A stretch of DNA of 64,000 nt from Candidatus Cloacimonadota bacterium (lineage in GTDB: Bacteria > Cloacimonadota > Cloacimonadia > Cloacimonadales > Cloacimonadaceae). Every line of letters begins with the position of its first letter. Position 1 is the first letter of the stretch. The notes under the pieces are model-generated. The model worked only from the letters and a program-made list of their open reading frames with translations, was not told the origin of the DNA and ran no database searches. The translations under genes were made by a program, and so were the position numbers. Shown here in pieces: positions 10,493-20,956 of the stretch. The stretch lies in contig JAKQWO010000021.1 in assembly GCA_029561955.1 (NCBI GenBank), positions 1 to 64,000 of the forward strand, in the 5' to 3' direction.

Positions 10493-10840
10493 ATGACCTT
10501 AAATGAAATAAAAACTCTTTTGGACGGTGAGGTTTTAAACCTCGGACCGGGGCTTGATGCTTTGGTTCCCTGTGCTATTGCGTCGGATATGATCAGCGAC
10601 ATCTTGATGAGTTGCAGGGAGCCCAGTCTGCTGCTTACAGGGCTTACAAACAATCAGGTGATCCGTCTTTCGGACATGGTCGATCTGGTTGGCATTGTGT
10701 TTGTGCGCAGCAAGCGTCCACTTGACGACATAGTCGAAATGGCAAGAGAAAGAAACTTGCCTTTGATCGTAACTTCCAAGACCTTATATACCGCCAGCGG
10801 CCTGCTTTACAACGCAGGTTTGCGCAGTAGCGACATCTAA
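10493..10840 (+). CDS. DRTGG-domain protein, hydrogenase cluster
   Basis: A 115-residue protein resembling the DRTGG domain, a small adenosine-binding-like fold often encoded beside [FeFe] hydrogenases: GEVLNLGPGLDALVPCAIASDMISDILM, then a TGLTNNQVIR turn and IVFVRSKRPLDDIV. The frame is open from 10433, but the ATG at 10493 starts the conserved part. A related copy lies at 12647. It begins a chain of closely packed sensory genes. Exact role unknown; a regulatory ligand-binding function is inferred. Confidence 0.7.
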   Translation: MTLNEIKTLLDGEVLNLGPGLDALVPCAIASDMISDILMSCREPSLLLTGLTNNQVIRLSDMVDLVGIVFVRSKRPLDDIVEMARERNLPLIVTSKTLYTASGLLYNAGLRSSDI

Positions 10841-10841
10841 C

Positions 10842-11339
10842 ATGGGCGAATACTGGAACATTAAACCTGAGCTTGAGGACAGCGTTAAGCAACACTTCTC
10901 AGCCCCGCCTGAGGCAGAAGTGGAGCTGGAATTTGAGGTTCCGGAGAAAGATTTTAATACGGCTGGCAGAGGTTCCAGCGAAGTAAAGGACTTACTCAAG
11001 CGTCTGGGTGTGGATTCCGAAACCCTGCGCAGGATTGCCGTCGCTTCCTATGAAGCCGAGATCAATCTGGCGGCACATTCCAAGGGTGGTGTGATGAGTT
11101 GTATGATCTACGACGATCTCATCCACCTCCGTTTTTTGGATAAAGGACCCGGCATTGAAGACATCACGCAAGCCATGATTCCGGGCTATTCAACGGCAGA
11201 TGAGTTGGTGCGTGAATTTGGGTTTGGCGCAGGCTTAGGTTTGCCCAACATCCAAAAGAACTCAGACGCGTTGCACATCCAATCCGCCAAAGGTAGTTCC
11301 ACATTATTGGAGCTGCTGATCTTCTTTTCAGCACCATGA
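10842..11339 (+). CDS. RsbT/anti-sigma-type ATP-binding protein
   Basis: A 165-residue GHKL ATPase fold without a dimerisation or histidine domain. The N-box is YEAEINLAAHS (about 70), the G1 box DKGPGI (about 100) and the G2 box GFGAGLGLPN (about 127). Proteins of this size act as serine kinases or anti-sigma-like switches. The gene starts one base after the DRTGG stop and overlaps the sensory hydrogenase gene by four bases (ATGA). Its position suggests it passes on a redox or H2 signal sensed by the next protein. Confidence 0.8.
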   Translation: MGEYWNIKPELEDSVKQHFSAPPEAEVELEFEVPEKDFNTAGRGSSEVKDLLKRLGVDSETLRRIAVASYEAEINLAAHSKGGVMSCMIYDDLIHLRFLDKGPGIEDITQAMIPGYSTADELVREFGFGAGLGLPNIQKNSDALHIQSAKGSSTLLELLIFFSAP

Positions 11340-12622
11340 GCAAGCAAAAGGCACATTACTTTCATGCTATCCAGATTTTGGGTGACAACTGCACCGGATG
11401 CACTTCCTGCGTGAGGGTCTGCCCCACGGAAGCCATCAGGGTGCGAAACCGCAAGGCAATTATAGACCCCACACGCTGCATAGACTGTGGTAACTGCGTG
11501 ACAGTGTGTCACTTTCATGCCATCATCCCCCGCAGCGATTCCATGAAGATCCTGGAGGATTACAAATATAAGGTGGCGATACTTCCAGCAGCTTATTTTG
11601 GCCAATTCACCGAAGATGTATCCTATGAAGTGGCCAAGGCTGCGGTCTTGAAGATTGGTTTTGATGAGGTTGCAGAAGAAGCTGTGATCACCGAGTTTAT
11701 GGTAAAAGTGATCCGTCAATATATCCGCAACAACCGCGATAAGCGCCCCATCCTCTCCAGCAACTGTCCTGCGGTAGTGCGCTTGATCCAGGTAAAATAT
11801 CCCTCACTCTTGCCCAGTGTCTTTCATCAAGAAGCGCCGATGAGCATCCTTACACGCTACTTGAGGGAGATCATCGAGGAAGAAAAGGGGATCAAAGACG
11901 AGGATTTGGGTATCTTCCTGATAGCACCCTGCGTAGCTCATGTAACGGCTGTTCACCAACCCGAAGGAGCTCACACTCACCTTCAGGATGGAGCATTTTC
12001 GGTGAGCATGATCTACGGCAAGGCGAGAGAACACATCAAAGAATTGCAAAATAACCCTCCCAAGATCGATACCTATCCCAAAGGGCTTACCTGGGCTCTC
12101 AGTGGCGTGCAGGCAGAGCTGGTGGATTGTGAAGACATCCGCACCCTGAGCGTCAATGGCATCGAAAACGTGATGGAAATCCTCTCTCGCGTGGAAGATC
12201 ACTACCTGGATCAATATGACTACATCGTACTGCGTAGCTGCACCAACGGCTGTGTGGGCGGATGTTTGAATGTGGAAAACCCCTTTGTGGCAATGAGCAG
12301 ACTCAAGAAGATGATCAAAGAGGGGAAGCCCAACGAGATTAACCTGGAAGGTATTGACAAGCTGTATAATAGTGGTGAATTTGACGTGGTTCCCTTGGCG
12401 CCGCGACCCATCATGGAACTGGATAAGGACATAAAGAGTGCCATCAAAAAGATGAAGCGGATCAACGAGTTTCTCACCATGCTGCCGGGACTCAATTGCG
12501 GTGCCTGCGGTTCACCCTCCTGCTATGCTCTGGCAGAAGACATCGTGCAGGATAGAGCCTCTTTGGATGATTGTGTGGTGCTGCTCAAGCGTCACTCCAA
12601 AGAAGAAGAAGATAATTATTAA
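11336..12622 (+). CDS. hydS: Sensory-type [FeFe] hydrogenase (HydS-like)
   Basis: A 428-residue protein. Two 4Fe-4S motifs, CTGCTSCVRVCP (about 19) and CIDCGNCVTVCH (about 49), precede an H-cluster domain. Its first motif reads NCPAVVRLI (about 142), so it lacks the TSC(C/S)PGW motif of catalytic enzymes. The second reads APCVAH (about 197), where catalytic enzymes have PCxxK. The third is CTNGCVGGC (about 302). A C-terminal NCGACGSPSC module (about 385) would bind another cluster. These are hallmarks of group C/D sensory hydrogenases, thought to sense H2 or redox state. It replaces the PAS-containing tail of some family members with the short Fe-S module only. Flanked by HATPase and DRTGG genes. 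Confidence 0.85.
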   Translation: MSKQKAHYFHAIQILGDNCTGCTSCVRVCPTEAIRVRNRKAIIDPTRCIDCGNCVTVCHFHAIIPRSDSMKILEDYKYKVAILPAAYFGQFTEDVSYEVAKAAVLKIGFDEVAEEAVITEFMVKVIRQYIRNNRDKRPILSSNCPAVVRLIQVKYPSLLPSVFHQEAPMSILTRYLREIIEEEKGIKDEDLGIFLIAPCVAHVTAVHQPEGAHTHLQDGAFSVSMIYGKAREHIKELQNNPPKIDTYPKGLTWALSGVQAELVDCEDIRTLSVNGIENVMEILSRVEDHYLDQYDYIVLRSCTNGCVGGCLNVENPFVAMSRLKKMIKEGKPNEINLEGIDKLYNSGEFDVVPLAPRPIMELDKDIKSAIKKMKRINEFLTMLPGLNCGACGSPSCYALAEDIVQDRASLDDCVVLLKRHSKEEEDNY

Positions 12623-12646
12623 AAAAACATATAGAGGATGTAAGCA

Positions 12647-12988
12647 ATGACCAAGTTACAAACTTTGATCCCCCTCATCCAAGCCACAAACCACACCCCC
12701 GGTCTTGACCCCGGAAAGGTGGAATTCAGCGGCGCTTACGTGAGCGATTTGCTCAGCGACGTGATGGGCTCAGCAAGCTCCGGACAGGTCTGGGTCACCA
12801 TCATGAGGCATCTGAACGTGGTTGCGGTGGCTTCCATGACCGGTATCACAGCGATCATCTTTGCCAAAGGCGTAGTTCCAGATGCCGATGTGATCGAAAA
12901 AGCCACAGAAGAAGGCATCCTGCTGCTCAGCAGCCCCATGGAAACCTTCAATGTAAGCGGGATTATCTACCAGACTCTGAATGACTAA
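12647..12988 (+). CDS. Second DRTGG-domain protein
   Basis: A 113-residue paralogue of the protein at 10493. It has GAYVSDLLSDVMGSASSG near residues 30-47 and ITAIIFAKGVVPDADVI near 68. Such single-domain DRTGG proteins recur next to sensory hydrogenases. An AGAGGATG ribosome binding site precedes the ATG. Ligand and partners are unknown. Confidence 0.72.
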   Translation: MTKLQTLIPLIQATNHTPGLDPGKVEFSGAYVSDLLSDVMGSASSGQVWVTIMRHLNVVAVASMTGITAIIFAKGVVPDADVIEKATEEGILLLSSPMETFNVSGIIYQTLND

Positions 12989-12999
12989 AGCTGCCTTTT

Positions 13000-13737
13000 A
13001 TGCAATGGTATACAGCCGACCTTCATATCCATTCAGTGCTCTCTCCCTGCGGAGGCTTGGAGATGGGGCCGCAGGATTTGATGCAAAGACTGATCGACTT
13101 GCATATCAATTGGCTGGCCATTACAGACCACAATACCTTGGCAAATTGCCCCGCCTATGCCAACGTGGCTCAGGCTATGGGGTTGGAGTTTAGCTGGGGC
13201 GTGGAAGTGCAGACTGCTGAGGAAATACATCTCTTGGTTTATTTTGATGATCCAGAAGCTGCTATGTGCTTTGATACAGAGCTTTACGCTGCTTTGCCAG
13301 ATATCGCCAACGACCCAGATTTTTTTGGAGATCAAGTTGTTATTGACGAAAAAGGTAACATTTTGAAACTGGAACCCAAAGCCTTATCCAACTCAGTGAT
13401 CTGGGATCTCTCACAAACGGTGGAGGTGGCTAAAAGCTACGGTGGATACTGCGTTCCGGCTCATGTAGATGCCTCGGTCAACAGCATTATCTCCCAGCTC
13501 GGCTTTTTGCCAACTGAGCCGGAGTTTGAGCTCTTTGGCATCACTGCGAAGCTAAAGCTGGCGCAGTGGCTGCAGCAGCATCCAGAGTTTGAAGGTAAAG
13601 CTTTTTTGCGTGCTTCAGATGCCCATTATCTGTCCGATTTAGGCATGGGAGCCACACGCCTCAGGCTGGAGAAAGCGTCCATTGCGGATCTTTTCAAAGC
13701 TGTGCGAGGCGAAAACCGAACCGAAATGATAGTATGA
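13000..13737 (+). CDS. PHP-domain metal-dependent phosphoesterase
   Basis: A 245-residue protein with PHP metal ligands DLHIHS (7-12), TDHN (about 42-45), PAHVD (about 158) and the late DAH (about 207). The family hydrolyses phosphoesters with a trinuclear metal site. In hydrogenase clusters of anaerobes a PHP gene commonly follows DRTGG and HydS genes, but the substrate is not known. It starts 11 bases after the DRTGG stop. The overlapping frame at 12981 is a shadow. Confidence 0.8.
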   Translation: MQWYTADLHIHSVLSPCGGLEMGPQDLMQRLIDLHINWLAITDHNTLANCPAYANVAQAMGLEFSWGVEVQTAEEIHLLVYFDDPEAAMCFDTELYAALPDIANDPDFFGDQVVIDEKGNILKLEPKALSNSVIWDLSQTVEVAKSYGGYCVPAHVDASVNSIISQLGFLPTEPEFELFGITAKLKLAQWLQQHPEFEGKAFLRASDAHYLSDLGMGATRLRLEKASIADLFKAVRGENRTEMIV

Positions 13738-13762
13738 AAAAAAGATATAGAAAGGAGGAGTA

Positions 13763-14242
13763 ATGTCTCCCGATACCCAGTTACAGCAACCTTACAAGAG
13801 GCTCAAGCAAGTGATTGAGGAGAAGAAGGATCTGCGCAATCCGCTGATCGAGATTCTCCGTATCGCTCAAGAGATCTTTGGTTATCTACCCATCGAGGTA
13901 CAAGAGTTTATCGCTGCCGAGATGAACATCCCCGTGAGTAAAATCTATGGAGTGGTTACTTTTTACAACTTCTTCTCCATGAAACCACGTGGCAAATACA
14001 CCCTCAATATCTGCATGGGCACCGCCTGCTATGTGAAAGGTGCGCCCAAGCTGGCTCAGATGATTTCAGACGTGTTGGGCACTCCCATGGGTGAGACCTC
14101 CGAAGACGGTCGCTTCACTTTGAGCGCAGTTCGCTGCGTGGGAGCTTGTTCTCTTGCGCCGGTGTTTGTGATCGGCGAAGACACATTTGGCCGTATTGAG
14201 ACCAAAGACCAAGTAGAAAAGATCTTGGCCCAATACAACTAA
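13763..14242 (+). CDS. NuoE/HydC-like [2Fe-2S] thioredoxin-fold protein (first copy)
   Basis: A 159-residue NuoE-family subunit. The four cluster cysteines are intact: CMGTAC (about 83-88) and CVGAC (about 125-129). GVVTFYNFFSMKPRGKYTLNIC is typical of the family. NuoE-type subunits carry one [2Fe-2S] cluster next to the flavin subunit. This copy sits in the sensory half of the cluster, apart from the catalytic HydB-HydC pair, so it may serve the sensory complex. Strong ribosome binding site AAGGAGG before the ATG. Confidence 0.85.
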   Translation: MSPDTQLQQPYKRLKQVIEEKKDLRNPLIEILRIAQEIFGYLPIEVQEFIAAEMNIPVSKIYGVVTFYNFFSMKPRGKYTLNICMGTACYVKGAPKLAQMISDVLGTPMGETSEDGRFTLSAVRCVGACSLAPVFVIGEDTFGRIETKDQVEKILAQYN

Positions 14243-14256
14243 TCCGGTCTACACAA

Positions 14257-14826
14257 ATGCAAGATATATCCCTACATCTACTTGATACGATTGAGAACTC
14301 CGTGCGAGCGGAGGCGCGTAATATCAAGGTGCGTGTGATAACGGATGTCTCCAAAAACCGCCTCCGGATAATCGTGGAAGACGACGGCGTGGGCATGGAC
14401 GCCCATACCTTGGAAATGGCCCAAAATCCCTTTTATACCAGCAAATTGGAGCGGGTGAAAAAGGTGGGGTTGGGCATCCCCTTGTTCAAGCAAAACGCAG
14501 AGCTCACAGGTGGCTGTTTCAAGATGGCAAGCGAGCCGGGCTTTGGCACCGTGCTCACCGTGGATTTTGGGCTTGATCACATCGACAGGATGCCACTTGG
14601 AAACCTCAAAGACACGCTGTTAGGCTGTATCGTTGGTCATCCGGAAGTGGATTTTAACATCAACCTAAGCTACTCAGAACGTGGTAGGGAACAGAGTTTT
14701 CACTTCGACACGGCTGCGATCAAGGAAGAGCTGGGCGACATCCCGCTCACCTATCCAGACGTGATCGAATATATCGACCAATCATTAAATCAAGGAATCA
14801 AAAATACAAATATGGAGGATGTCTGA
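14257..14826 (+). CDS. Histidine-kinase-like ATP-binding protein
   Basis: A 189-residue GHKL fold: N-box LDTIENSVRAEA (about 8-19), G1 box DDGVGM (about 42) and G2 box KVGLGIPL (about 70). No phospho-accepting histidine domain is seen, so it is probably a stand-alone ATPase or kinase module. The C-terminal 70 residues are an extra domain I do not recognise. Its TGA overlaps the next ATG (TGATG). It pairs with the other HATPase at 10842 in a two-kinase sensory module. Confidence 0.78.
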   Translation: MQDISLHLLDTIENSVRAEARNIKVRVITDVSKNRLRIIVEDDGVGMDAHTLEMAQNPFYTSKLERVKKVGLGIPLFKQNAELTGGCFKMASEPGFGTVLTVDFGLDHIDRMPLGNLKDTLLGCIVGHPEVDFNINLSYSERGREQSFHFDTAAIKEELGDIPLTYPDVIEYIDQSLNQGIKNTNMEDV

Positions 14827-15191
14827 TGAAGACACTTGCCGACCTTAAGAAGATCCGTGAGAAAGCTCAGGAAGAGATGAAGCTGCGCGGATCAGATGCA
14901 CGTATCAAAATCGTTGTCGGAATGGGAACTTCCGGAATCGCCATGGGCGCCCGCGAAGTGATGAGAACATTCCTGGAAGAAATCGCAAATCGTAATCTCA
15001 CAGACGTTATCGTAACGCAAACTGGAGAGAAAGGGCTTTCCTCCCTGGAGCCAGTGGTTGATCTCATGGAAGAAGGCAAAGAGACAGTTACCTATGGAAA
15101 CATGACCCCAGACAAGGTCAAGAAGGTGGTAGTCGAGCATATCGTCAACGGAAGAATTGTCTCCGACTATGTAGTGTCGACGGGCAATTAA
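14826..15191 (+). CDS. Cysteine-free (2Fe-2S) ferredoxin-like protein
   Basis: A 121-residue protein with the thioredoxin-like ferredoxin fold usual in HydB-type operons, recognisable from RIKIVVGMGTSGIAMGAREV and VTYGNMTPDKVKKVVVEHI. The cluster ligands are gone: TSG stands where TCG is expected, and TGEKGLSSLEP where the family has TGCxGxC. The protein contains no cysteine at all. It cannot bind a [2Fe-2S] cluster in the usual way and may be a structural or regulatory subunit. Its reading frame is intact and its neighbours are coupled, so decay alone is unlikely. Confidence 0.75.
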   Translation: MKTLADLKKIREKAQEEMKLRGSDARIKIVVGMGTSGIAMGAREVMRTFLEEIANRNLTDVIVTQTGEKGLSSLEPVVDLMEEGKETVTYGNMTPDKVKKVVVEHIVNGRIVSDYVVSTGN

Positions 15192-15205
15192 AGAGGAGGA
15201 TGATA

Positions 15206-17062
15206 ATGTCTCTGAAAAGAATTGATCTGCTGATCTGCTGCGGTTCGAGCTGTATATCAGCAGGTGCATTGAAAATCAAAGAAGCTTTCCACAGGGCAAT
15301 AGAAGACAAAGGGCTCACTCACGAGATCAACATCATCGAAACAGGATGTATGGGCCCCTGTGATTATGGCCCAGTATTGGTGATCTACCCCGAGGGAATC
15401 TTCTATAAACATGTAGCTATTGAAGACGTAGAAGAAATTGTATCAGAACACTTTATCAAAGGACGCCCCGTGACTCGTCTGATGTTGCAGGATGAAGAGA
15501 AGACCATCAGAATGCAAAAAGAGGTGCCCTTTTACCAGAAACAGATCAAGGTGGCATTGGAAAATTGCGGCTACATCAACCCCGAAAGTATGGACGAATA
15601 CATCGCCACCGGCGGTTATGAGGCATTGGGAATGGCTCTCACTACTATGGACCCCCAAGACGCCATCAATATCGTCAAAGCCTCCGGTTTGAGGGGACGC
15701 GGCGGTGGTGGATTCCCCACTCACATCAAATGGCAGATGGTGCACGACAGGCAAGAAAAAGAAAAGTATATCATCTGCAACGGTGACGAAGGTGACCCCG
15801 GTGCCTTTATGGACCGTTCCCTGCTCGAAGGTGATCCACACAGAGTGTTGGAAGGCATGATGATCGCTGCCTACAGCATCGGAGCCAGCCAGGGCTTCTT
15901 CTACATCCGTGCAGAATATCCTTTGGCTATCAAACGCATCCGCCAAGCGATCGAACAAGCCCGCAGCATAGGACTGATGGGACAAAACATCTTTGGCACA
16001 GATTTCTGCTTTGAAGCGGAAGTGCGCACCGGCGCAGGCGCCTTTGTGTGTGGTGAAGAAATGGCGCTCATCCACTCCATCGAAGGCGAACGTGGAAACC
16101 CCACACCCAAACCACCATATCCAGCAGTTCAAGGCCTCTGGGGCAAACCCACCGTGGTCAACAACGTGGAAACCTTTGCCAATATCCCCAGCATCTTTGT
16201 GAAAGGAGCCGATTGGTTTGCCAACATGGGAACCGAGACATCCAAGGGAACCAAAGTGTTTGCCCTCACAGGTGATGTGCGCAATACCGGTCTCGTGGAA
16301 GTGCCCATGGGCATCACGCTCAGAGAGTTGATCTTTGAAGTGGGTGGCGGCATTATCAACGACCGCAAATTTAAAGCTGTGCAACTGGGCGGCCCCTCTG
16401 GTGGTTGTTTGACCGCAGAACACCTGGACGTGGGCGTTGACTATGAAAGCCTCAAAGCACGTGGAGCCATGATGGGTTCCGGTGGTGTGATCGTGATGGA
16501 CGAGCGTAAGTGCATGGTGAACGTAGCAAAGTTCTTCATCGAATTCTGCGTGGAAGAATCCTGCGGAAAATGCTCACCCTGCCGCATCGGACTCAAGCAG
16601 ATGCACCACATCATGGAACGCATCACCTCCGGAAACGGTCGTGAAGGCGACATCGATGAATTGCTACGCTTGGGCGAAAGCGTGCGCAACCTCTCACTCT
16701 GCGGCCTCGGTCAAACCGCTCCCAACCCTGTGCTTTCTACCATCCGCTATTTCCGCGATGAGTATGAAACACATATCCGTGATAAGTCCTGTCATGCAAA
16801 TGTATGCCTCGATCTTATGCACTTTCAGATTGATAAAGACCGCTGCATCGGTTGTTCACTCTGCTCACGCAAGTGCCCTGCAACCTGCATCAGCGGCTCA
16901 AGGGAAGAAAAATACACCATTCATCAGGTTGAATGCATCAAATGCGGAAACTGCTTTGACGTCTGCCCTGTAAAAGCCATTGAAAAGATTCCTGGAGTCC
17001 CTGAAGAAGTAGCTGCCCACAAAGCCCGTAAAGCAGCACAAAAATCTGATGATCTGTTCTAA
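15206..17062 (+). CDS. hydB: Electron-bifurcating hydrogenase flavin subunit HydB (HndC type)
   Basis: A 618-residue diaphorase subunit. The N-terminal thioredoxin-like [2Fe-2S] domain has CCGSSC (11-16) and CMGPC (about 48). The NuoF core has GRGGGGFP (about 165), NGDEGDPGAFMDR, and 4Fe-4S ligands ESCGKCSPC (about 451). Two C-terminal 4Fe-4S motifs are CIGCSLCSRKCP (about 548) and CIKCGNCFDVCP (about 578). It binds FMN and NAD(P)H and splits electrons between the nicotinamide and ferredoxin branches. An ATG at 15200 directly abuts the AGGAGG ribosome binding site, so ATG 15206 (six-base spacing) is preferred. Confidence 0.9.
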   Translation: MSLKRIDLLICCGSSCISAGALKIKEAFHRAIEDKGLTHEINIIETGCMGPCDYGPVLVIYPEGIFYKHVAIEDVEEIVSEHFIKGRPVTRLMLQDEEKTIRMQKEVPFYQKQIKVALENCGYINPESMDEYIATGGYEALGMALTTMDPQDAINIVKASGLRGRGGGGFPTHIKWQMVHDRQEKEKYIICNGDEGDPGAFMDRSLLEGDPHRVLEGMMIAAYSIGASQGFFYIRAEYPLAIKRIRQAIEQARSIGLMGQNIFGTDFCFEAEVRTGAGAFVCGEEMALIHSIEGERGNPTPKPPYPAVQGLWGKPTVVNNVETFANIPSIFVKGADWFANMGTETSKGTKVFALTGDVRNTGLVEVPMGITLRELIFEVGGGIINDRKFKAVQLGGPSGGCLTAEHLDVGVDYESLKARGAMMGSGGVIVMDERKCMVNVAKFFIEFCVEESCGKCSPCRIGLKQMHHIMERITSGNGREGDIDELLRLGESVRNLSLCGLGQTAPNPVLSTIRYFRDEYETHIRDKSCHANVCLDLMHFQIDKDRCIGCSLCSRKCPATCISGSREEKYTIHQVECIKCGNCFDVCPVKAIEKIPGVPEEVAAHKARKAAQKSDDLF

Positions 17063-17080
17063 CGATAAAGGAGATCCTTT

Positions 17081-17536
17081 ATGTACAAAGAAATATTCTC
17101 CAAGTATGAACCCACCAAGGATAACCTGATCTACATCCTGCATGAGATTCAGGATAAACATCCTCAGCACTATATATCAGAAGACGCGGTGGATAAGGTT
17201 GCCGAATACCTGAAAGTGCCGGCAAACCACATTTATGGCGTGCTCACATTTTACACGATGTATAGCACCACACCGCGTGGGAAAAACATCATCCGCCTTT
17301 GCGAATCCCCACCTTGCTATATCAAGGGCACGGTAAACATCCTCAGAAAGCTCAAAGCTCTACTGGATGTGGAAATAGGTGAAACCACCAAAGATGGCCA
17401 CTTTACCTTGGAACTCTGCGCATGCCTGGGTGTGTGTGGAAACGCCCCCGTGATGATGATCAATGAAGATGTCTATGGCGACCTCACCGAAGAGAAAGTG
17501 GAAGACATCATCGAAAAATACAGGAGGGCAAAATGA
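17081..17536 (+). CDS. hydC: Hydrogenase [2Fe-2S] subunit HydC (NuoE-like)
   Basis: A 151-residue NuoE-family protein. The ligands CESPPC (about 74-79) and CACLGVC (about 113) give the expected C-x4-C and C-x3-C pattern. HIYGVLTFYTMYSTTPRGK is family typical. It bridges electrons between flavin subunit and HydA. It is only moderately similar to the copy at 13763. Overlaps the next gene by four bases (ATGA). Confidence 0.88.
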   Translation: MYKEIFSKYEPTKDNLIYILHEIQDKHPQHYISEDAVDKVAEYLKVPANHIYGVLTFYTMYSTTPRGKNIIRLCESPPCYIKGTVNILRKLKALLDVEIGETTKDGHFTLELCACLGVCGNAPVMMINEDVYGDLTEEKVEDIIEKYRRAK

Positions 17537-19095
17537 AGTTCTATCGCAGTCATGTCCTTGTAAGTGTCAGCGACACATCCGTTTTGGCTGGTGTGCATGA
17601 TTTTATCAAAGCATTGCGTAGTGAACTCGCCAAACAAAAGCTCTCGGATGAGATAAACGTATTGGAAACCGGCCCGCTTGGCTTTTTTGGCCGTGGGATA
17701 TGCCTCAGCGTATATCCTGAACACGTCAACTACCAAGACCTCAAGATCGAAGACATCGGCGAGCTGGTGGAAGAACACTTCCTCAAAGGACGTCCCGTCC
17801 GCCGTCTGATGCTGGATTCATTTGGTAAGTTTAGCCCCAAATTCAACTATGAAAACCGCATTGTCTTGCGCAATTCTGGCGTCATCGACCCCGAAAGCAT
17901 AGATGAATATCTCGGCACCGGTGGTTATGAAGCCTGGGAAAAAGCACTCACCGAGATGCAGCCCATGCAGATCGTGGAAGAAGTGAAAGCTTCCGGCCTC
18001 AATGGCCGCGGTGGAGCTGGCTTCCCCGCAGGCGTGAAATGGAGCTTTACCGCAAATCTGGAAGCAGACCAAAAGTATGTGGTGGTAAATGCTGACGAAG
18101 GTGAGCCGGGAACCTTTAAAGACCGTCTCATCATGGAAGGCGATCCGCATCAGCTTATCGAAGGCTTGATGATCTGCGCCAGAGCCGTGGGTGCCACCAA
18201 AGCTTACATCTACATCCGTGGCGAATACAAGCTCTGCATCCAACGCTTGGAAAAAGCTCTCGCTCAATGCCGTGAATATGGCCTCTTGGGCAAGAACATC
18301 CTGGATAGCGGCTTTGATCTGGATATAGATATCAAGATCGGTGCGGGAGCGTATGTGTGCGGCGAAGAAACGGCACTGATAGAATCCCTGGAAGGAAACC
18401 GTGGTAACCCCAGATGGAAACCTCCCTTCCCCGGCGTGGAAGGTCTCTGGAAAAAACCCACCGTGGTCAACAACGTCGAGACCCTTGCCAACGTGCCCTT
18501 CATCATCAAAAATGGTGCTGCCGCATTCCGCAAATTTGGCACCGAAAAGTGCCCGGGAACGAAGGTATACACCATCCTGGGTGATGTAGCCCATCCCGGA
18601 CTCTGTGAAGTGGATATGGGCACCACCCTGCGCACCATCATCGACGACTACGCTGGCGGCATGAAACAAGGCTTCCTCTTTAAGGCAGCTCTTGTAGGCG
18701 GCGCAGCAGGCGTGATTATCAGCGAGAAATATCTGGACGTCAAAATGGATTTTGCCAGCCTCAATGAATATGCCGCAGTGCTGGGCTCAGGCGCAATCCT
18801 TGTCCTCAACGAGAAAGAAAGCATTGTGGACATCCTGTGGTCTATAATTCGCTTCTTCCGCCACGAATCATGCGGACAGTGTTCGCCTTGTCGCAACGGC
18901 TGCCAATCACTCTACAACCTGATCACCAAGATCAGAAAAGGTGACGGTACCATGGACGACGTGGAAATGATGATCACCATAGCCGAAACAATGTTTGGCA
19001 CAAGCTTCTGCGCTCTGGGCCAATCACCCATCATGGCGATCCGCTCCGCCGTCGAAAACTTCAAAGATGAATTCATCGCAATAACAAATAAGTAA
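17533..19095 (+). CDS. Second NuoF-type flavin subunit
   Basis: A 520-residue NuoF homologue distinct from HydB. The core is complete-I-like: GRGGAGFP (about 158), NADEGEPGTFKDR, CGEETALIESLEG, and ESCGQCSPC (about 445). Two parts differ from HydB. The N-terminal thioredoxin-like domain has lost its cluster ligands (VSVSDTSV and ETGPLGFFGRG replace the cysteine motifs), and there is no C-terminal ferredoxin extension. It should still bind FMN, NADH and one 4Fe-4S. Two unlike flavin subunits beside one HydA suggest either a four-subunit complex or alternative assemblies. Confidence 0.85.
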   Translation: MKFYRSHVLVSVSDTSVLAGVHDFIKALRSELAKQKLSDEINVLETGPLGFFGRGICLSVYPEHVNYQDLKIEDIGELVEEHFLKGRPVRRLMLDSFGKFSPKFNYENRIVLRNSGVIDPESIDEYLGTGGYEAWEKALTEMQPMQIVEEVKASGLNGRGGAGFPAGVKWSFTANLEADQKYVVVNADEGEPGTFKDRLIMEGDPHQLIEGLMICARAVGATKAYIYIRGEYKLCIQRLEKALAQCREYGLLGKNILDSGFDLDIDIKIGAGAYVCGEETALIESLEGNRGNPRWKPPFPGVEGLWKKPTVVNNVETLANVPFIIKNGAAAFRKFGTEKCPGTKVYTILGDVAHPGLCEVDMGTTLRTIIDDYAGGMKQGFLFKAALVGGAAGVIISEKYLDVKMDFASLNEYAAVLGSGAILVLNEKESIVDILWSIIRFFRHESCGQCSPCRNGCQSLYNLITKIRKGDGTMDDVEMMITIAETMFGTSFCALGQSPIMAIRSAVENFKDEFIAITNK

Positions 19096-19115
19096 GATAA
19101 AGAGGAAAGATAATT

Positions 19116-20897
19116 ATGGCAAAATTAGTCAACGTCTGGATCGATGGCCATCACCTGGAAGTTCCCAGTGACATGACCATCATTGAGGCTGCTGATAAAC
19201 ACGGCCTTTACATCCCCCGTTTATGCTACCATCCGGATCTGCCACCCACCGCCAACTGCGGCGTCTGTGTGGTCGAAATCGAAAAAATGCCCGTCCCCAA
19301 ACGTGCTTGCTGCACACCTGTTGCCGAAGGTATGAAAGTCACCACCAACAGCAAGAAATTGCGTGCCTATAGAAAAACACTGGTGGAAATGATTCTCTCA
19401 AACCACGATGTCGTCTGCCCCACCTGCGTGGCAAACAACAAATGCGAGCTGCAAACACTATCCAACAACTTGGGCATCGAAGCTGACACCTTACCCAAAA
19501 TCCTGGCCAAGAAACCAGTCGATGCCAGCTCCCCCTCAATCGTCAGAGACCCCAATAAGTGCATAGGTTGCGGCAGATGCATTACCGTCTGCAACGAAGT
19601 GCAGACCGTCTATGCTCTCACCATGACCGAGCGCGGCTTTGAAGCATACCCTTCGGTGGCTTTCGAGCATGGAATGGGCACCAGCTCCTGCGTAAACTGC
19701 GGTCAATGCACAGTTTACTGCCCCACCGGCGCCCTGCGTGAGAATAGCGAAATTGAAGCCGTCTGGGATGCCATCCTGGATCCTGAAAAACACGTCATCG
19801 TTCAGGAAGCCCCCTCCATCCGCGTGTCTTTGGGTGAAGAATTCGGCATGCCCTTAGGCTCCGTCACTCCCAAGAAGATGTACGCCGCTCTGCGTAAGAT
19901 TGGCTTTGACAGCGTGATGGATACAAACTTCACCGCCGACCTTACCATCATGGAAGAGGGAAGCGAATGCGTTGCCAAGCTCAAATCCGGCAGCAAACGT
20001 CCCCTGATCACCTCCTGCTCCCCCGGTTGGGTCAAGTTTATGGAAACCTACTATCCTGATCTGGCAGATTGCGTCTCCACGGCAAAATCTCCCATGAGCA
20101 TGTTTGGTGCGCTTTCCAAGACCTACTATGCCGAGCAAAATGGCATCGACCCCGCCAAGATCGTAAGCGTGGCGATCATGCCCTGCACCGCAAAGAAGTT
20201 TGAAGCCAGACGCCCCGAGCTCAACGACTCCGGCTATCAGGATACAGACTACGTGCTCACCACACGTGAATTTATCCGCATGATCAAAGAAGCCGGTATC
20301 GACTTTGCCAACATCCCGGAAGAAGAACCAGATGAAGGAATGAGCTTCTACACCGGCGCTGGAACCATCTTCGGCGCTACCGGTGGCGTGATGGAAGCCG
20401 CCATCCGCTCTGCCTGGTTCTTGGTAACCGGCACCGAGCTGGAAGACATGGAAGTCAAAGCAGTGCGTGGCTTGCAAGGCGTGAAAGAGGCCACTCTCGA
20501 TGTCCCCGGTTTTGGCAAACTGAGCGTGGCTGTGGCTCACGGACTCTCCAATGCCCGCATTGTGATGGATCGTGTGCGCGATAGCCTCGCTACCACAGGC
20601 GAATCTCCCTGGCACTTCATCGAAATAATGGCCTGCCCCGGTGGATGCGTGGGCGGCGGTGGACAACCCTATGGAAACGACATCGCCTCCAGAGCACGCA
20701 GAGGACTGGCTCTCTATGAAGAAGACAGAGACCTGCCTCTGCGCAGATCCCACCAGAACCCTGAAGTAGCCAAAATCTACAAAGACTACTTGGGCGCCCC
20801 GCTCTCCGAGAAAGCACTCAAATTGCTCCACACCTTCTATTTCGAACGCTCTAAGTATACCGGAAAAGTGGTGAAGGAAGCAACTCACAAACACTGA
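19116..20897 (+). CDS. hydA: [FeFe] hydrogenase catalytic subunit HydA
   Basis: A 593-residue enzyme with modular N-terminus: plant-type [2Fe-2S] (RLCYHP, NCGVC, RACC at about 36-70), His-Cys 4Fe-4S (HDVVCPTCVANNKC, about 97), and two 4Fe-4S motifs (CIGCGRCITVC, about 149; CVNCGQCTVYC, about 192). H-cluster motifs are TSCSPGW (about 298), MPCTAKKFE (about 355) and MACPGGCVGGGGQP (about 506). The C-terminal 50 residues match the small-subunit domain. It evolves or oxidises H2 using electrons from the HydB/HydC partners. The first motif has Ser where many monomeric enzymes have a second Cys. A terminator follows 27 bases downstream. Confidence 0.93.
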   Translation: MAKLVNVWIDGHHLEVPSDMTIIEAADKHGLYIPRLCYHPDLPPTANCGVCVVEIEKMPVPKRACCTPVAEGMKVTTNSKKLRAYRKTLVEMILSNHDVVCPTCVANNKCELQTLSNNLGIEADTLPKILAKKPVDASSPSIVRDPNKCIGCGRCITVCNEVQTVYALTMTERGFEAYPSVAFEHGMGTSSCVNCGQCTVYCPTGALRENSEIEAVWDAILDPEKHVIVQEAPSIRVSLGEEFGMPLGSVTPKKMYAALRKIGFDSVMDTNFTADLTIMEEGSECVAKLKSGSKRPLITSCSPGWVKFMETYYPDLADCVSTAKSPMSMFGALSKTYYAEQNGIDPAKIVSVAIMPCTAKKFEARRPELNDSGYQDTDYVLTTREFIRMIKEAGIDFANIPEEEPDEGMSFYTGAGTIFGATGGVMEAAIRSAWFLVTGTELEDMEVKAVRGLQGVKEATLDVPGFGKLSVAVAHGLSNARIVMDRVRDSLATTGESPWHFIEIMACPGGCVGGGGQPYGNDIASRARRGLALYEEDRDLPLRRSHQNPEVAKIYKDYLGAPLSEKALKLLHTFYFERSKYTGKVVKEATHKH

Positions 20898-20923: not shown

Positions 20924-20956
20924 AAGCCCTGGATCGGAATGATCTGGGGCTTTTTT
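20924..20956 (+). terminator. Rho-independent terminator of the hydrogenase cluster
   Basis: A twelve-pair stem AAGCCCTGGATC/GATCTGGGGCTT (two G-T pairs) with loop GGAAT, ending in a run of T residues, 27 bases after the hydA stop. Confidence 0.9.

What the first reader, a model, noticed from the sequence alone, without database searches (positions are those of the whole stretch)
10493..14826. Complete sensory module attached to a bifurcating hydrogenase
In one run: DRTGG, GHKL ATPase, HydS-like sensory hydrogenase, DRTGG, PHP phosphoesterase, NuoE-like subunit, second GHKL ATPase. HydS has non-catalytic H-cluster motifs (NCPAVVR, APCVAH). Such sets are known as conserved neighbours in anaerobes, but their signalling logic is not described. 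Two HATPases and two DRTGG proteins suggest a two-arm switch reading H2 or redox state, perhaps acting through a PHP-cleaved nucleotide.
Basis: partly seen in the sequence, partly recalled or inferred. Interest (0 to 1): 0.55.

Follow-up and report, generated by a model that had tools for sequence, protein, structure and literature searches.

The report
Swappable-sensor kinase module beside hydrogenase
Next to a hydrogen-making enzyme sits a set of six regulatory genes that many oxygen-avoiding bacteria keep together, with the sensor part sometimes swapped for a different one, so it looks like a general and so far undescribed switch for balancing electrons.

Summary
The gene list is right. The window (a Cloacimonadota genome) carries DRTGG1-HATP1-HydS-DRTGG2-PHP, then NuoE and HATP2, at the head of a HydBC/HydA operon. 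The unit is six genes: both DRTGG proteins, both GHKL ATPases, HydS and PHP; NuoE belongs to the hydrogenase. It is not tied to hydrogenase: it stands alone in Parabacteroides and some Bacillota, and precedes Rnf or NuoEF-Rex-Nfn in others. Elsewhere HydS is absent and HATP1 carries two CBS domains instead, before HydABC, Rnf or NuoEF/HdrA-like genes. Natural fusions join DRTGG1~HATP1, HATP1~HydS, HydS~DRTGG2 and PHP~HATP2. Catalytic residues of HATP1 (SpoIIAB-like) and PHP are invariant; each DRTGG protein has one invariant serine at a helix start. Best reading: a redox/energy input drives a serine-kinase switch on the DRTGG proteins, which PHP and HATP2 oppose or relay. HydS keeps its cluster cysteines, but in this phylum almost always lacks a lysine near the diiron site that most Bacillota homologues keep, and one Bacillota clade has HydS without detected maturases or hydrogenase; it may sense redox state, not only H2. 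Phosphorylation and target are inferred.

The parts
10493..10840 (+). DRTGG1, 115 aa, DRTGG-fold protein with invariant Ser35
   Evidence: Pfam; AlphaFold pLDDT 91.8, Foldseek best 2ioj DRTGG; S35 in 100% of 101 nr85 sequences
10842..11339 (+). HATP1, 165 aa, GHKL ATPase of SpoIIAB/RsbT type (candidate serine kinase)
   Evidence: spIIAB 1.2e-10 below cut-off; best PDB match anti-sigma F factor SpoIIAB; E71, N75, D100, G102, G104, G127, G129, G131, G133, N136 100% in 117
11336..12622 (+). HydS, 428 aa, group D-like [FeFe]-hydrogenase homologue without PAS domain
   Evidence: C388-x2-C391-x4-C396-x16-C413; all FeS cysteines kept; C299N, M353A, K358H, M497R in CpI numbering
12647..12988 (+). DRTGG2, 113 aa, DRTGG-fold protein with invariant D34 and S37
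   Evidence: 100% of 119 nr85 sequences
13000..13737 (+). PHP-family metal-dependent phosphoesterase, 245 aa
   Evidence: PF02811; H9, H11, D43, H44, E69, H77, H155, D207, H209 100% in 112; PDB neighbours 5'-3' exoribonuclease and PHP phosphoesterases
13763..14242 (+). NuoE/HydC-like 2Fe-2S subunit (hydrogenase side, not regulatory)
   Evidence: PF01257 2e-46; absent from stand-alone modules
14257..14826 (+). HATP2, 189 aa, second GHKL ATPase, no DHp domain
   Evidence: PF02518 5e-13; in stand-alone modules and fused to PHP in L118, L138, L139, L148; D10, N14, D42, G44, G46 100% in 78
14826..15191 (+). Thioredoxin-like ferredoxin homologue, 121 aa, without cysteines here
   Evidence: fdxn_Clost 1e-10 below cut-off; ligand Cys in 96% of 52 relatives are S36, E68, S72 here
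15200..17062 (+). HydB1 (NuoF-like, FMN, C-terminal 2x4Fe4S)
17081..17536 (+). second NuoE
17533..19095 (+). HydB2, second NuoF-like subunit, without C-terminal ferredoxin domain
19116..20897 (+). HydA, catalytic [FeFe]-hydrogenase
   Evidence: NF040763 group A6, 800.5 bits, cut-off 765
20924..20952 (+). terminator-like hairpin after hydA
   Evidence: 13-pair stem with T tail (consensus match only)

Best explanation
The genes form a six-part regulatory module (DRTGG1, HATP1, HydS, DRTGG2, PHP, HATP2) that tunes low-potential redox enzymes (HydABC, Rnf, NuoEF/HdrA-like, Nfn). Shown by comparison: the unit, its fixed order, its independence of hydrogenase, and that the input is exchangeable (HydS, or two CBS domains fused to the kinase). 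Inferred: HydS reports H2 or electron pressure through its Fe-S clusters by direct contact with HATP1 and DRTGG2. HATP1, a SpoIIAB/RsbT-type kinase, phosphorylates the invariant serine at the start of the second helix of DRTGG1 and/or DRTGG2. PHP (with HATP2) reverses or relays this. The DRTGG proteins, in one state, bind the neighbouring redox enzyme or a regulator and adjust activity or expression. It works like a partner switch with DRTGG proteins in place of STAS proteins.
For: Conserved unit and order; 158 of 161 HydS genomes have HATP1. Fusions DRTGG1~HATP1, HATP1~HydS, HydS~DRTGG2, PHP~HATP2. Sensor swap: CBS pair on HATP1 (Pfam for three proteins) with HydABC (L190), Rnf (L162, L164) and NuoEF/HdrA-like genes (L181-L186, L188, L189, L196, L197); HydS with Rnf (L137) and with NuoEF-Rex-Nfn (L154). 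On the HATP1 tree the CBS state needs 4 changes, at least 2 forced by starred branches. Stand-alone modules L099, L109, L149, L150. Invariant catalytic and serine residues; DRTGG folds with the serine at a helix N-terminus. The serine aligns with Ala in the one canonical DRTGG protein compared, 2ioj.
Against: No phosphorylation, interaction or expression data. No STAS, PP2C phosphatase or sigma factor in the module; the output is unidentified. The invariant serine could be a helix cap or ligand site. HATP2 has Asp at the general-base position (position by recalled comparison) and no assigned role. Minimal copies keep only HydS-DRTGG2 (L134, L142, L144, L146), 2 of 64 roomy non-Cloacimonadota loci even less (L116, L151), and L191-L193 lack PHP, so not every part is always needed.
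Confidence: 0.5

Rival explanations
1. An assembly or repair factor set: HydS acts as an Fe-S scaffold or dummy catalytic subunit and the ATPases, DRTGG and PHP proteins help build or store HydABC-type complexes.
For: The genes lie inside enzyme operons; minimal copies keep HydS-DRTGG2 beside HydABC; HydS resembles the catalytic subunit.
Against: Stand-alone modules, and genomes without detected group A hydrogenase, HydG or HydF; replacement of HydS by CBS domains in the same hydrogenase operon (L190).
Confidence: 0.15
2. A dedicated H2 sensor acting on hydrogenase transcription (classical group C/D HydS view).
For: HydS usually neighbours HydABC; cubane cysteines kept; TamHydS binds H2 with raised affinity and is flanked by a kinase-like gene and an AraC regulator (PMC8163306 passages).
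Against: Lysine at the K358 position in only 1 of 72 Cloacimonadota HydS rows (2 of the 72 have a gap there); C355 is Ser in 8 of 72; clade G299/G421/G154/G505 has HydS with Gln there and no HydG (all candidates scored), no HydF over cut-off and no group A HydA; Rnf- and Nfn-linked modules; no DNA-binding protein in the module.
Confidence: 0.2
3. A nucleotide-messenger switch: DRTGG proteins bind a nucleotide, PHP hydrolyses it, GHKL ATPases are read-outs.
For: PHP active site invariant, relatives cleave nucleic acids or nucleotides; CBS pair in swapped versions, as in CBS-DRTGG pyrophosphatase.
Against: No synthase in the module; GHKL proteins are not known (recalled) to make messengers; the canonical DRTGG motif residues are not kept (by reading the sequences).
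Confidence: 0.12

Closest known systems
Group D (M2e) putatively sensory [FeFe]-hydrogenase, TamHydS of Thermoanaerobacter mathranii (PMC8163306, PMC13104023: passages read)
   Same: Domain order, Cx2Cx4Cx16C C-terminal cluster, no PAS, C299 lost, upstream of a trimeric bifurcating hydrogenase, kinase-like ATPase nearby; partners not identified in the 2026 paper
   Different: Window protein has Ala at M353 (Ser/Thr in M2e) and His at K358; TamHydS sequence not at hand here. The passages read do not mention DRTGG, PHP or sensor swapping
SpoIIAB/RsbW/RsbT partner-switching kinases
   Same: HATP1 fold family and catalytic residues; best PDB match SpoIIAB
   Different: No STAS antagonist, no PP2C phosphatase in the module; DRTGG proteins sit in their place
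CBS-DRTGG regulatory region of family II pyrophosphatase (3l31, 3l2b)
   Same: DRTGG fold and, in swapped modules, CBS pair nearby
   Different: Separate proteins, no pyrophosphatase, serine motif instead of canonical residues
Group C HydS with PAS and kinase/phosphatase domains (TmHydS, RaHydS, HfsB)
   Same: Presumed sensing role, H-domain relatives
   Different: Signalling by fused PAS; here a separate six-gene set. A homologue of group C length (570-aa frame) exists elsewhere in this genome (G000:C44)

Membership tests
Group D (M2e) [FeFe]-hydrogenase | H-domain plus two N-terminal 4Fe4S plus C-terminal Cx2Cx4Cx16C, no PAS | tested here: met
   C388, C391, C396, C413
Group D (M2e) [FeFe]-hydrogenase | C299 (CpI) not conserved | tested here: met
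   Asn143; A/S/N in 85 of 91 nr85
Group D (M2e) [FeFe]-hydrogenase | M353 replaced by Ser/Thr (called well conserved in PMC8163306) | tested here: not met
   Ala in window, Val in 67 of 72 Cloacimonadota rows; Ser/Thr in 67 of 91 nr85 overall
Group D (M2e) [FeFe]-hydrogenase | Phylogenetic placement with TamHydS | not tested
   TamHydS sequence not available through the calls made
STAS partner-switching system | GHKL serine kinase | tested here: met
   sequence only, catalytic Glu/Asn and glycine boxes invariant
STAS partner-switching system | STAS-domain antagonist | tested here: not met
   no STAS among module proteins; DRTGG folds instead
STAS partner-switching system | PP2C phosphatase | tested here: not met
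   none in the module; PHP instead
STAS partner-switching system | Kinase phosphorylates a serine of its partner | not testable with these tools
   invariant Ser in both DRTGG proteins is only consistent with it
DRTGG domain (PF07085) | Sequence over curated cut-off | tested here: not met
   22.2 and 22.4 bits against 25.2
DRTGG domain (PF07085) | DRTGG fold | tested here: met
   2ioj TM 0.84 and 0.82 of query
PHP phosphoesterase | Metal-binding His/Asp/Glu set | tested here: met
   nine residues 100% in 112; their role as metal ligands is recalled
NADH-dependent group A6 [FeFe]-hydrogenase (HydA) | NF040763 over cut-off | tested here: met
   800.5 vs 765 bits

The most novel reading that the evidence does not exclude
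A general signalling system of anaerobes with exchangeable sensors: an H-cluster-derived Fe-S protein or a CBS pair sets a SpoIIAB-type kinase that marks the invariant serine of two DRTGG proteins, a PHP enzyme removes the mark, and the DRTGG proteins steer ferredoxin/NADH enzymes (HydABC, Rnf, Nfn, HdrA-like): a STAS-free partner switch. In the window's phylum and one Bacillota clade the hydrogenase-like sensor no longer works as a typical H2 site and reads redox poise.
Probability: 0.3. Interest if true: 0.85.

Novelty: new variant of a known kind. Interest (0 to 1): 0.62.

Why it matters
How group C/D sensory hydrogenases pass on their signal is open; the 2026 TamHydS paper (PMC13104023, passages read) asks for the interaction partners and finds that the C-terminal cluster is not reduced by H2. 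The comparison here names likely partners by order and natural fusion (HATP1, DRTGG1, DRTGG2, PHP, HATP2) and shows that the input is exchangeable. It turns the question into simple kinase and pull-down tests and points to a regulator common to several classes of energy-conserving enzymes in fermenters. Of 398 sampled Bacillota genomes, 161 carry the HydS form.

Tried and rejected
Rejected: module specific to hydrogenase (stand-alone, Rnf and Nfn contexts); NuoE as a sensory part; HATP2 as a histidine kinase (no DHp domain matched); HydS as plainly non-catalytic.

Weak or abandoned: viral contigs gave no relative; PHROGs no match; a paper search for DRTGG with hydrogenase gave one unrelated paper; searches for locus tags and for the gene set gave only the 2012-2013 genome surveys and one stress paper seen as a listing. 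Absence of HydG is not proof of absence of an H-cluster: 36 of the 46 HydS genomes without HydG (E 1e-80) have a group A HydA over cut-off, and 34 of these 36 lack HydF over cut-off. In the wide HydG scan only three candidates a genome were scored; completeness of these genomes is not told. So that argument rests on the clade G299/G421/G154/G505, where all HydG candidates were scored (in G421 and G154 the only matches were about 375 aa and below cut-off, ThiH-like by recalled length). Lysine loss goes with HydG absence (5 of 18 vs 1 of 65, p 0.0015), but four of the five are one clade. Window-phylum genomes with HydS, where the lysine is nearly always lost, mostly do have HydG (52 of 66).

Sampling: 60 Bacillota regions were picked by hand with preference for odd lengths and low scores, so exceptions are over-represented; some species may occur in both genome collections. 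Rows dropped: L026 from A4, L032 from A5, near-identical rows at 85%, duplicate loci and 15 loci without room.
Full report
What is there. The window lies on contig C35 of a 2.1 Mb Cloacimonadota genome. From 10493 to 20897 twelve genes run on the + strand with small gaps or overlaps: DRTGG1, HATP1, HydS, DRTGG2, PHP, NuoE, HATP2, a 121-aa ferredoxin-like protein, HydB1, NuoE2, HydB2, HydA. A terminator-like hairpin follows hydA.

The unit. With profiles built from the window proteins and their relatives I read gene order in loci from Cloacimonadota, Bacillota and one Bacteroidota record. The order DRTGG1-HATP1-HydS-DRTGG2-PHP is exact in 133 of 152 loci with room, and two more differ only by a further HydS homologue upstream. 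All six genes including HATP2 are near HydS in 17 of 18 Cloacimonadota and 52 of 64 other loci with wide flanks. In clostridial loci L030-L032 the sensory genes face away from NuoE-HATP2-Fd-HydB-HydA; in L118, L138, L139 and L148 HATP2 is fused to PHP on the sensory side. In Parabacteroides distasonis (L099) and in L109, L149, L150 the six genes stand alone. So NuoE is a hydrogenase part and HATP2 a regulatory part.

Fusions. Single open frames join DRTGG1~HATP1 (L076, L078, L088, L090, L094, L122, L140; also L175), HATP1~HydS (L103), HydS~DRTGG2 (L101, L102) and PHP~HATP2 (L118, L138, L139, L148). This is indirect evidence for contact between neighbours. Minimal second copies keep only HydS and DRTGG2 (L134, L142, L144, L146).

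Sensor swap. In the 398 Bacillota genomes sampled, 161 have HydS (E 1e-50), 169 the HATP1 family proper (clear gap from SpoIIAB-like matches), 158 both, 11 only HATP1. Looking at the latter and at second copies: in several HATP1 carries two N-terminal CBS domains (Pfam E 1e-28 or better in the three proteins tested) and HydS is missing. L190 is the cleanest case: DRTGG1 - CBS-HATP1 - DRTGG2 - PHP - HATP2 - NuoE - Fd - HydB - HydA with a full H-domain in HydA. L162 and L164: DRTGG1 - CBS-HATP1 - Fd - RnfC... (contents read for L164). Ten Cloacimonadota loci: NuoE - Fd - NuoF - DRTGG1 - CBS-HATP1 - DRTGG2 - PHP - HATP2, some cut by a contig end, followed where visible by a ~1090-aa NuoG/HdrA-like protein. 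In the other direction, HydS modules precede RnfC-D-G-E-A in L137 and NuoEF-Rex-NfnAB in L154. DRTGG1-HATP1 without either sensor precedes Rex and NfnAB in L169; L170 has the same HATP1 context but was not read in full. On a tree of 117 HATP1 sequences the CBS state needs 4 changes, at least 2 forced by starred branches; support is patchy (26 of 114 inner branches starred) and L190 has a long end branch. In G430 and G513 the HydS locus has only DRTGG1-HATP1-HydS while a second, CBS locus carries DRTGG2, PHP and HATP2: perhaps two inputs share one output set.

Catalytic residues. HATP1: E71 and N75, aligned with the E/N of the SpoIIAB N-box (that this Glu is SpoIIAB's general base is recalled), and the glycine boxes are invariant in 117 sequences; PHP: nine metal-site residues invariant in 112; DRTGG1 S35 and DRTGG2 D34/S37 invariant in 101 and 119. 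AlphaFold models (pLDDT 91.8 and 96.6) match DRTGG structures and HPr kinase. The serine lies at the start of the second helix, after a strand, which recalls (from memory) the phosphoserine place in STAS antagonists; in the canonical DRTGG protein 2ioj the aligned residue is Ala.

HydS. Domain layout fits group D (M2e): C388-x2-C391-x4-C396-x16-C413, no PAS, C299 lost. Cubane ligands C144, C302, C306 are invariant in 91 and C199 in 87 of 91. Unlike M2e as described, M353 is not Ser/Thr here. The K358 position (a diiron-site contact, recalled) is His in 53, Gln in 13 and Lys in 1 of 72 Cloacimonadota rows. This genome has HydG, so it can build H-clusters for HydA. In Bacillota, 46 of 161 HydS genomes show no HydG at 1e-80, 44 of the 46 no HydF over cut-off, 9 of the 46 no group A HydA match. 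The firmest case is the clade G299/G421/G154/G505 with stand-alone modules (G505's contig is short) and Gln at K358. G349 (L209) looks the same: stand-alone, Gln. Against this reading, 36 of the 46 have HydA over cut-off, so missing HydG is not a safe sign (see Tried and rejected). In Cloacimonadota 14 of 66 HydS genomes lack HydG, among them G057 (100% complete) and G050 (99%).

Literature. Group D genes next to kinases and bifurcating hydrogenases are known (PMC3561251, PMC3608648, PMC8163306; passages). PMC13104023 (passages) reports that the C-terminal cluster is not reduced by H2 and calls for partner identification. Hydrogenedentota clusters whose C3 proteins carry fused PAS or kinase domains are in PMC11406978 (passages). 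I found no description of DRTGG/PHP/CBS in this setting (searches; open-licence papers only; Calusinska 2010 was not read).

Mechanism and limits. The module, its fusions, its sensor swap and its enzyme contexts are shown by sequence. Kinase activity, the serine as target, PHP as opposing enzyme, HATP2's role and the final target are inference. The range of enzymes (HydABC, Rnf, Nfn, NuoEF/HdrA-like) and of inputs (Fe-S/H-cluster protein; CBS pair, usually an adenylate sensor, recalled) points to electron and energy balance.

Noticed in passing
window 14826-15191 and 17533-19095: The 121-aa ferredoxin-like protein and the N-terminal domain of HydB2 lack the 2Fe-2S cysteines; in the first, relatives keep them in about 96% of 52. 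HydB/NuoE are doubled in this lineage.
   Followed up: partly
G000:C44:2202-2723: A second HydS-type homologue (570-aa frame, group C length) lies elsewhere in the same genome.
   Followed up: no
L204, L206, L210 and L111, L113-L115: The last gene of the operon is a low-scoring HydA-like protein (230-370 aa where the frame was printed), apparently without the H-domain, so the partner enzyme may not be a hydrogenase.
   Followed up: partly
G360 and 33 other Bacillota genomes: Group A HydA over cut-off without detectable HydG (1e-80) or HydF over cut-off; missed genes, incomplete genomes or another maturation route.
   Followed up: partly
L137, L154, L156, L164, L165, L169: A folC-type Mur-ligase gene and a small SPOR-like protein precede DRTGG1 in several clostridial lineages, as if the module sits at one old locus and the downstream enzyme changed (names by reading the sequence, not by a profile).
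   Followed up: no
L154, L156, L169, L112: A Rex-like redox repressor lies within a few kb downstream of the module (Pfam domains for L154, L156, L169; L112 by sequence only).
   Followed up: partly
L028, L033, L037, L038, L208: Ser replaces the cubane ligand at the C355 position of HydS, together with Gln at K358.
   Followed up: partly
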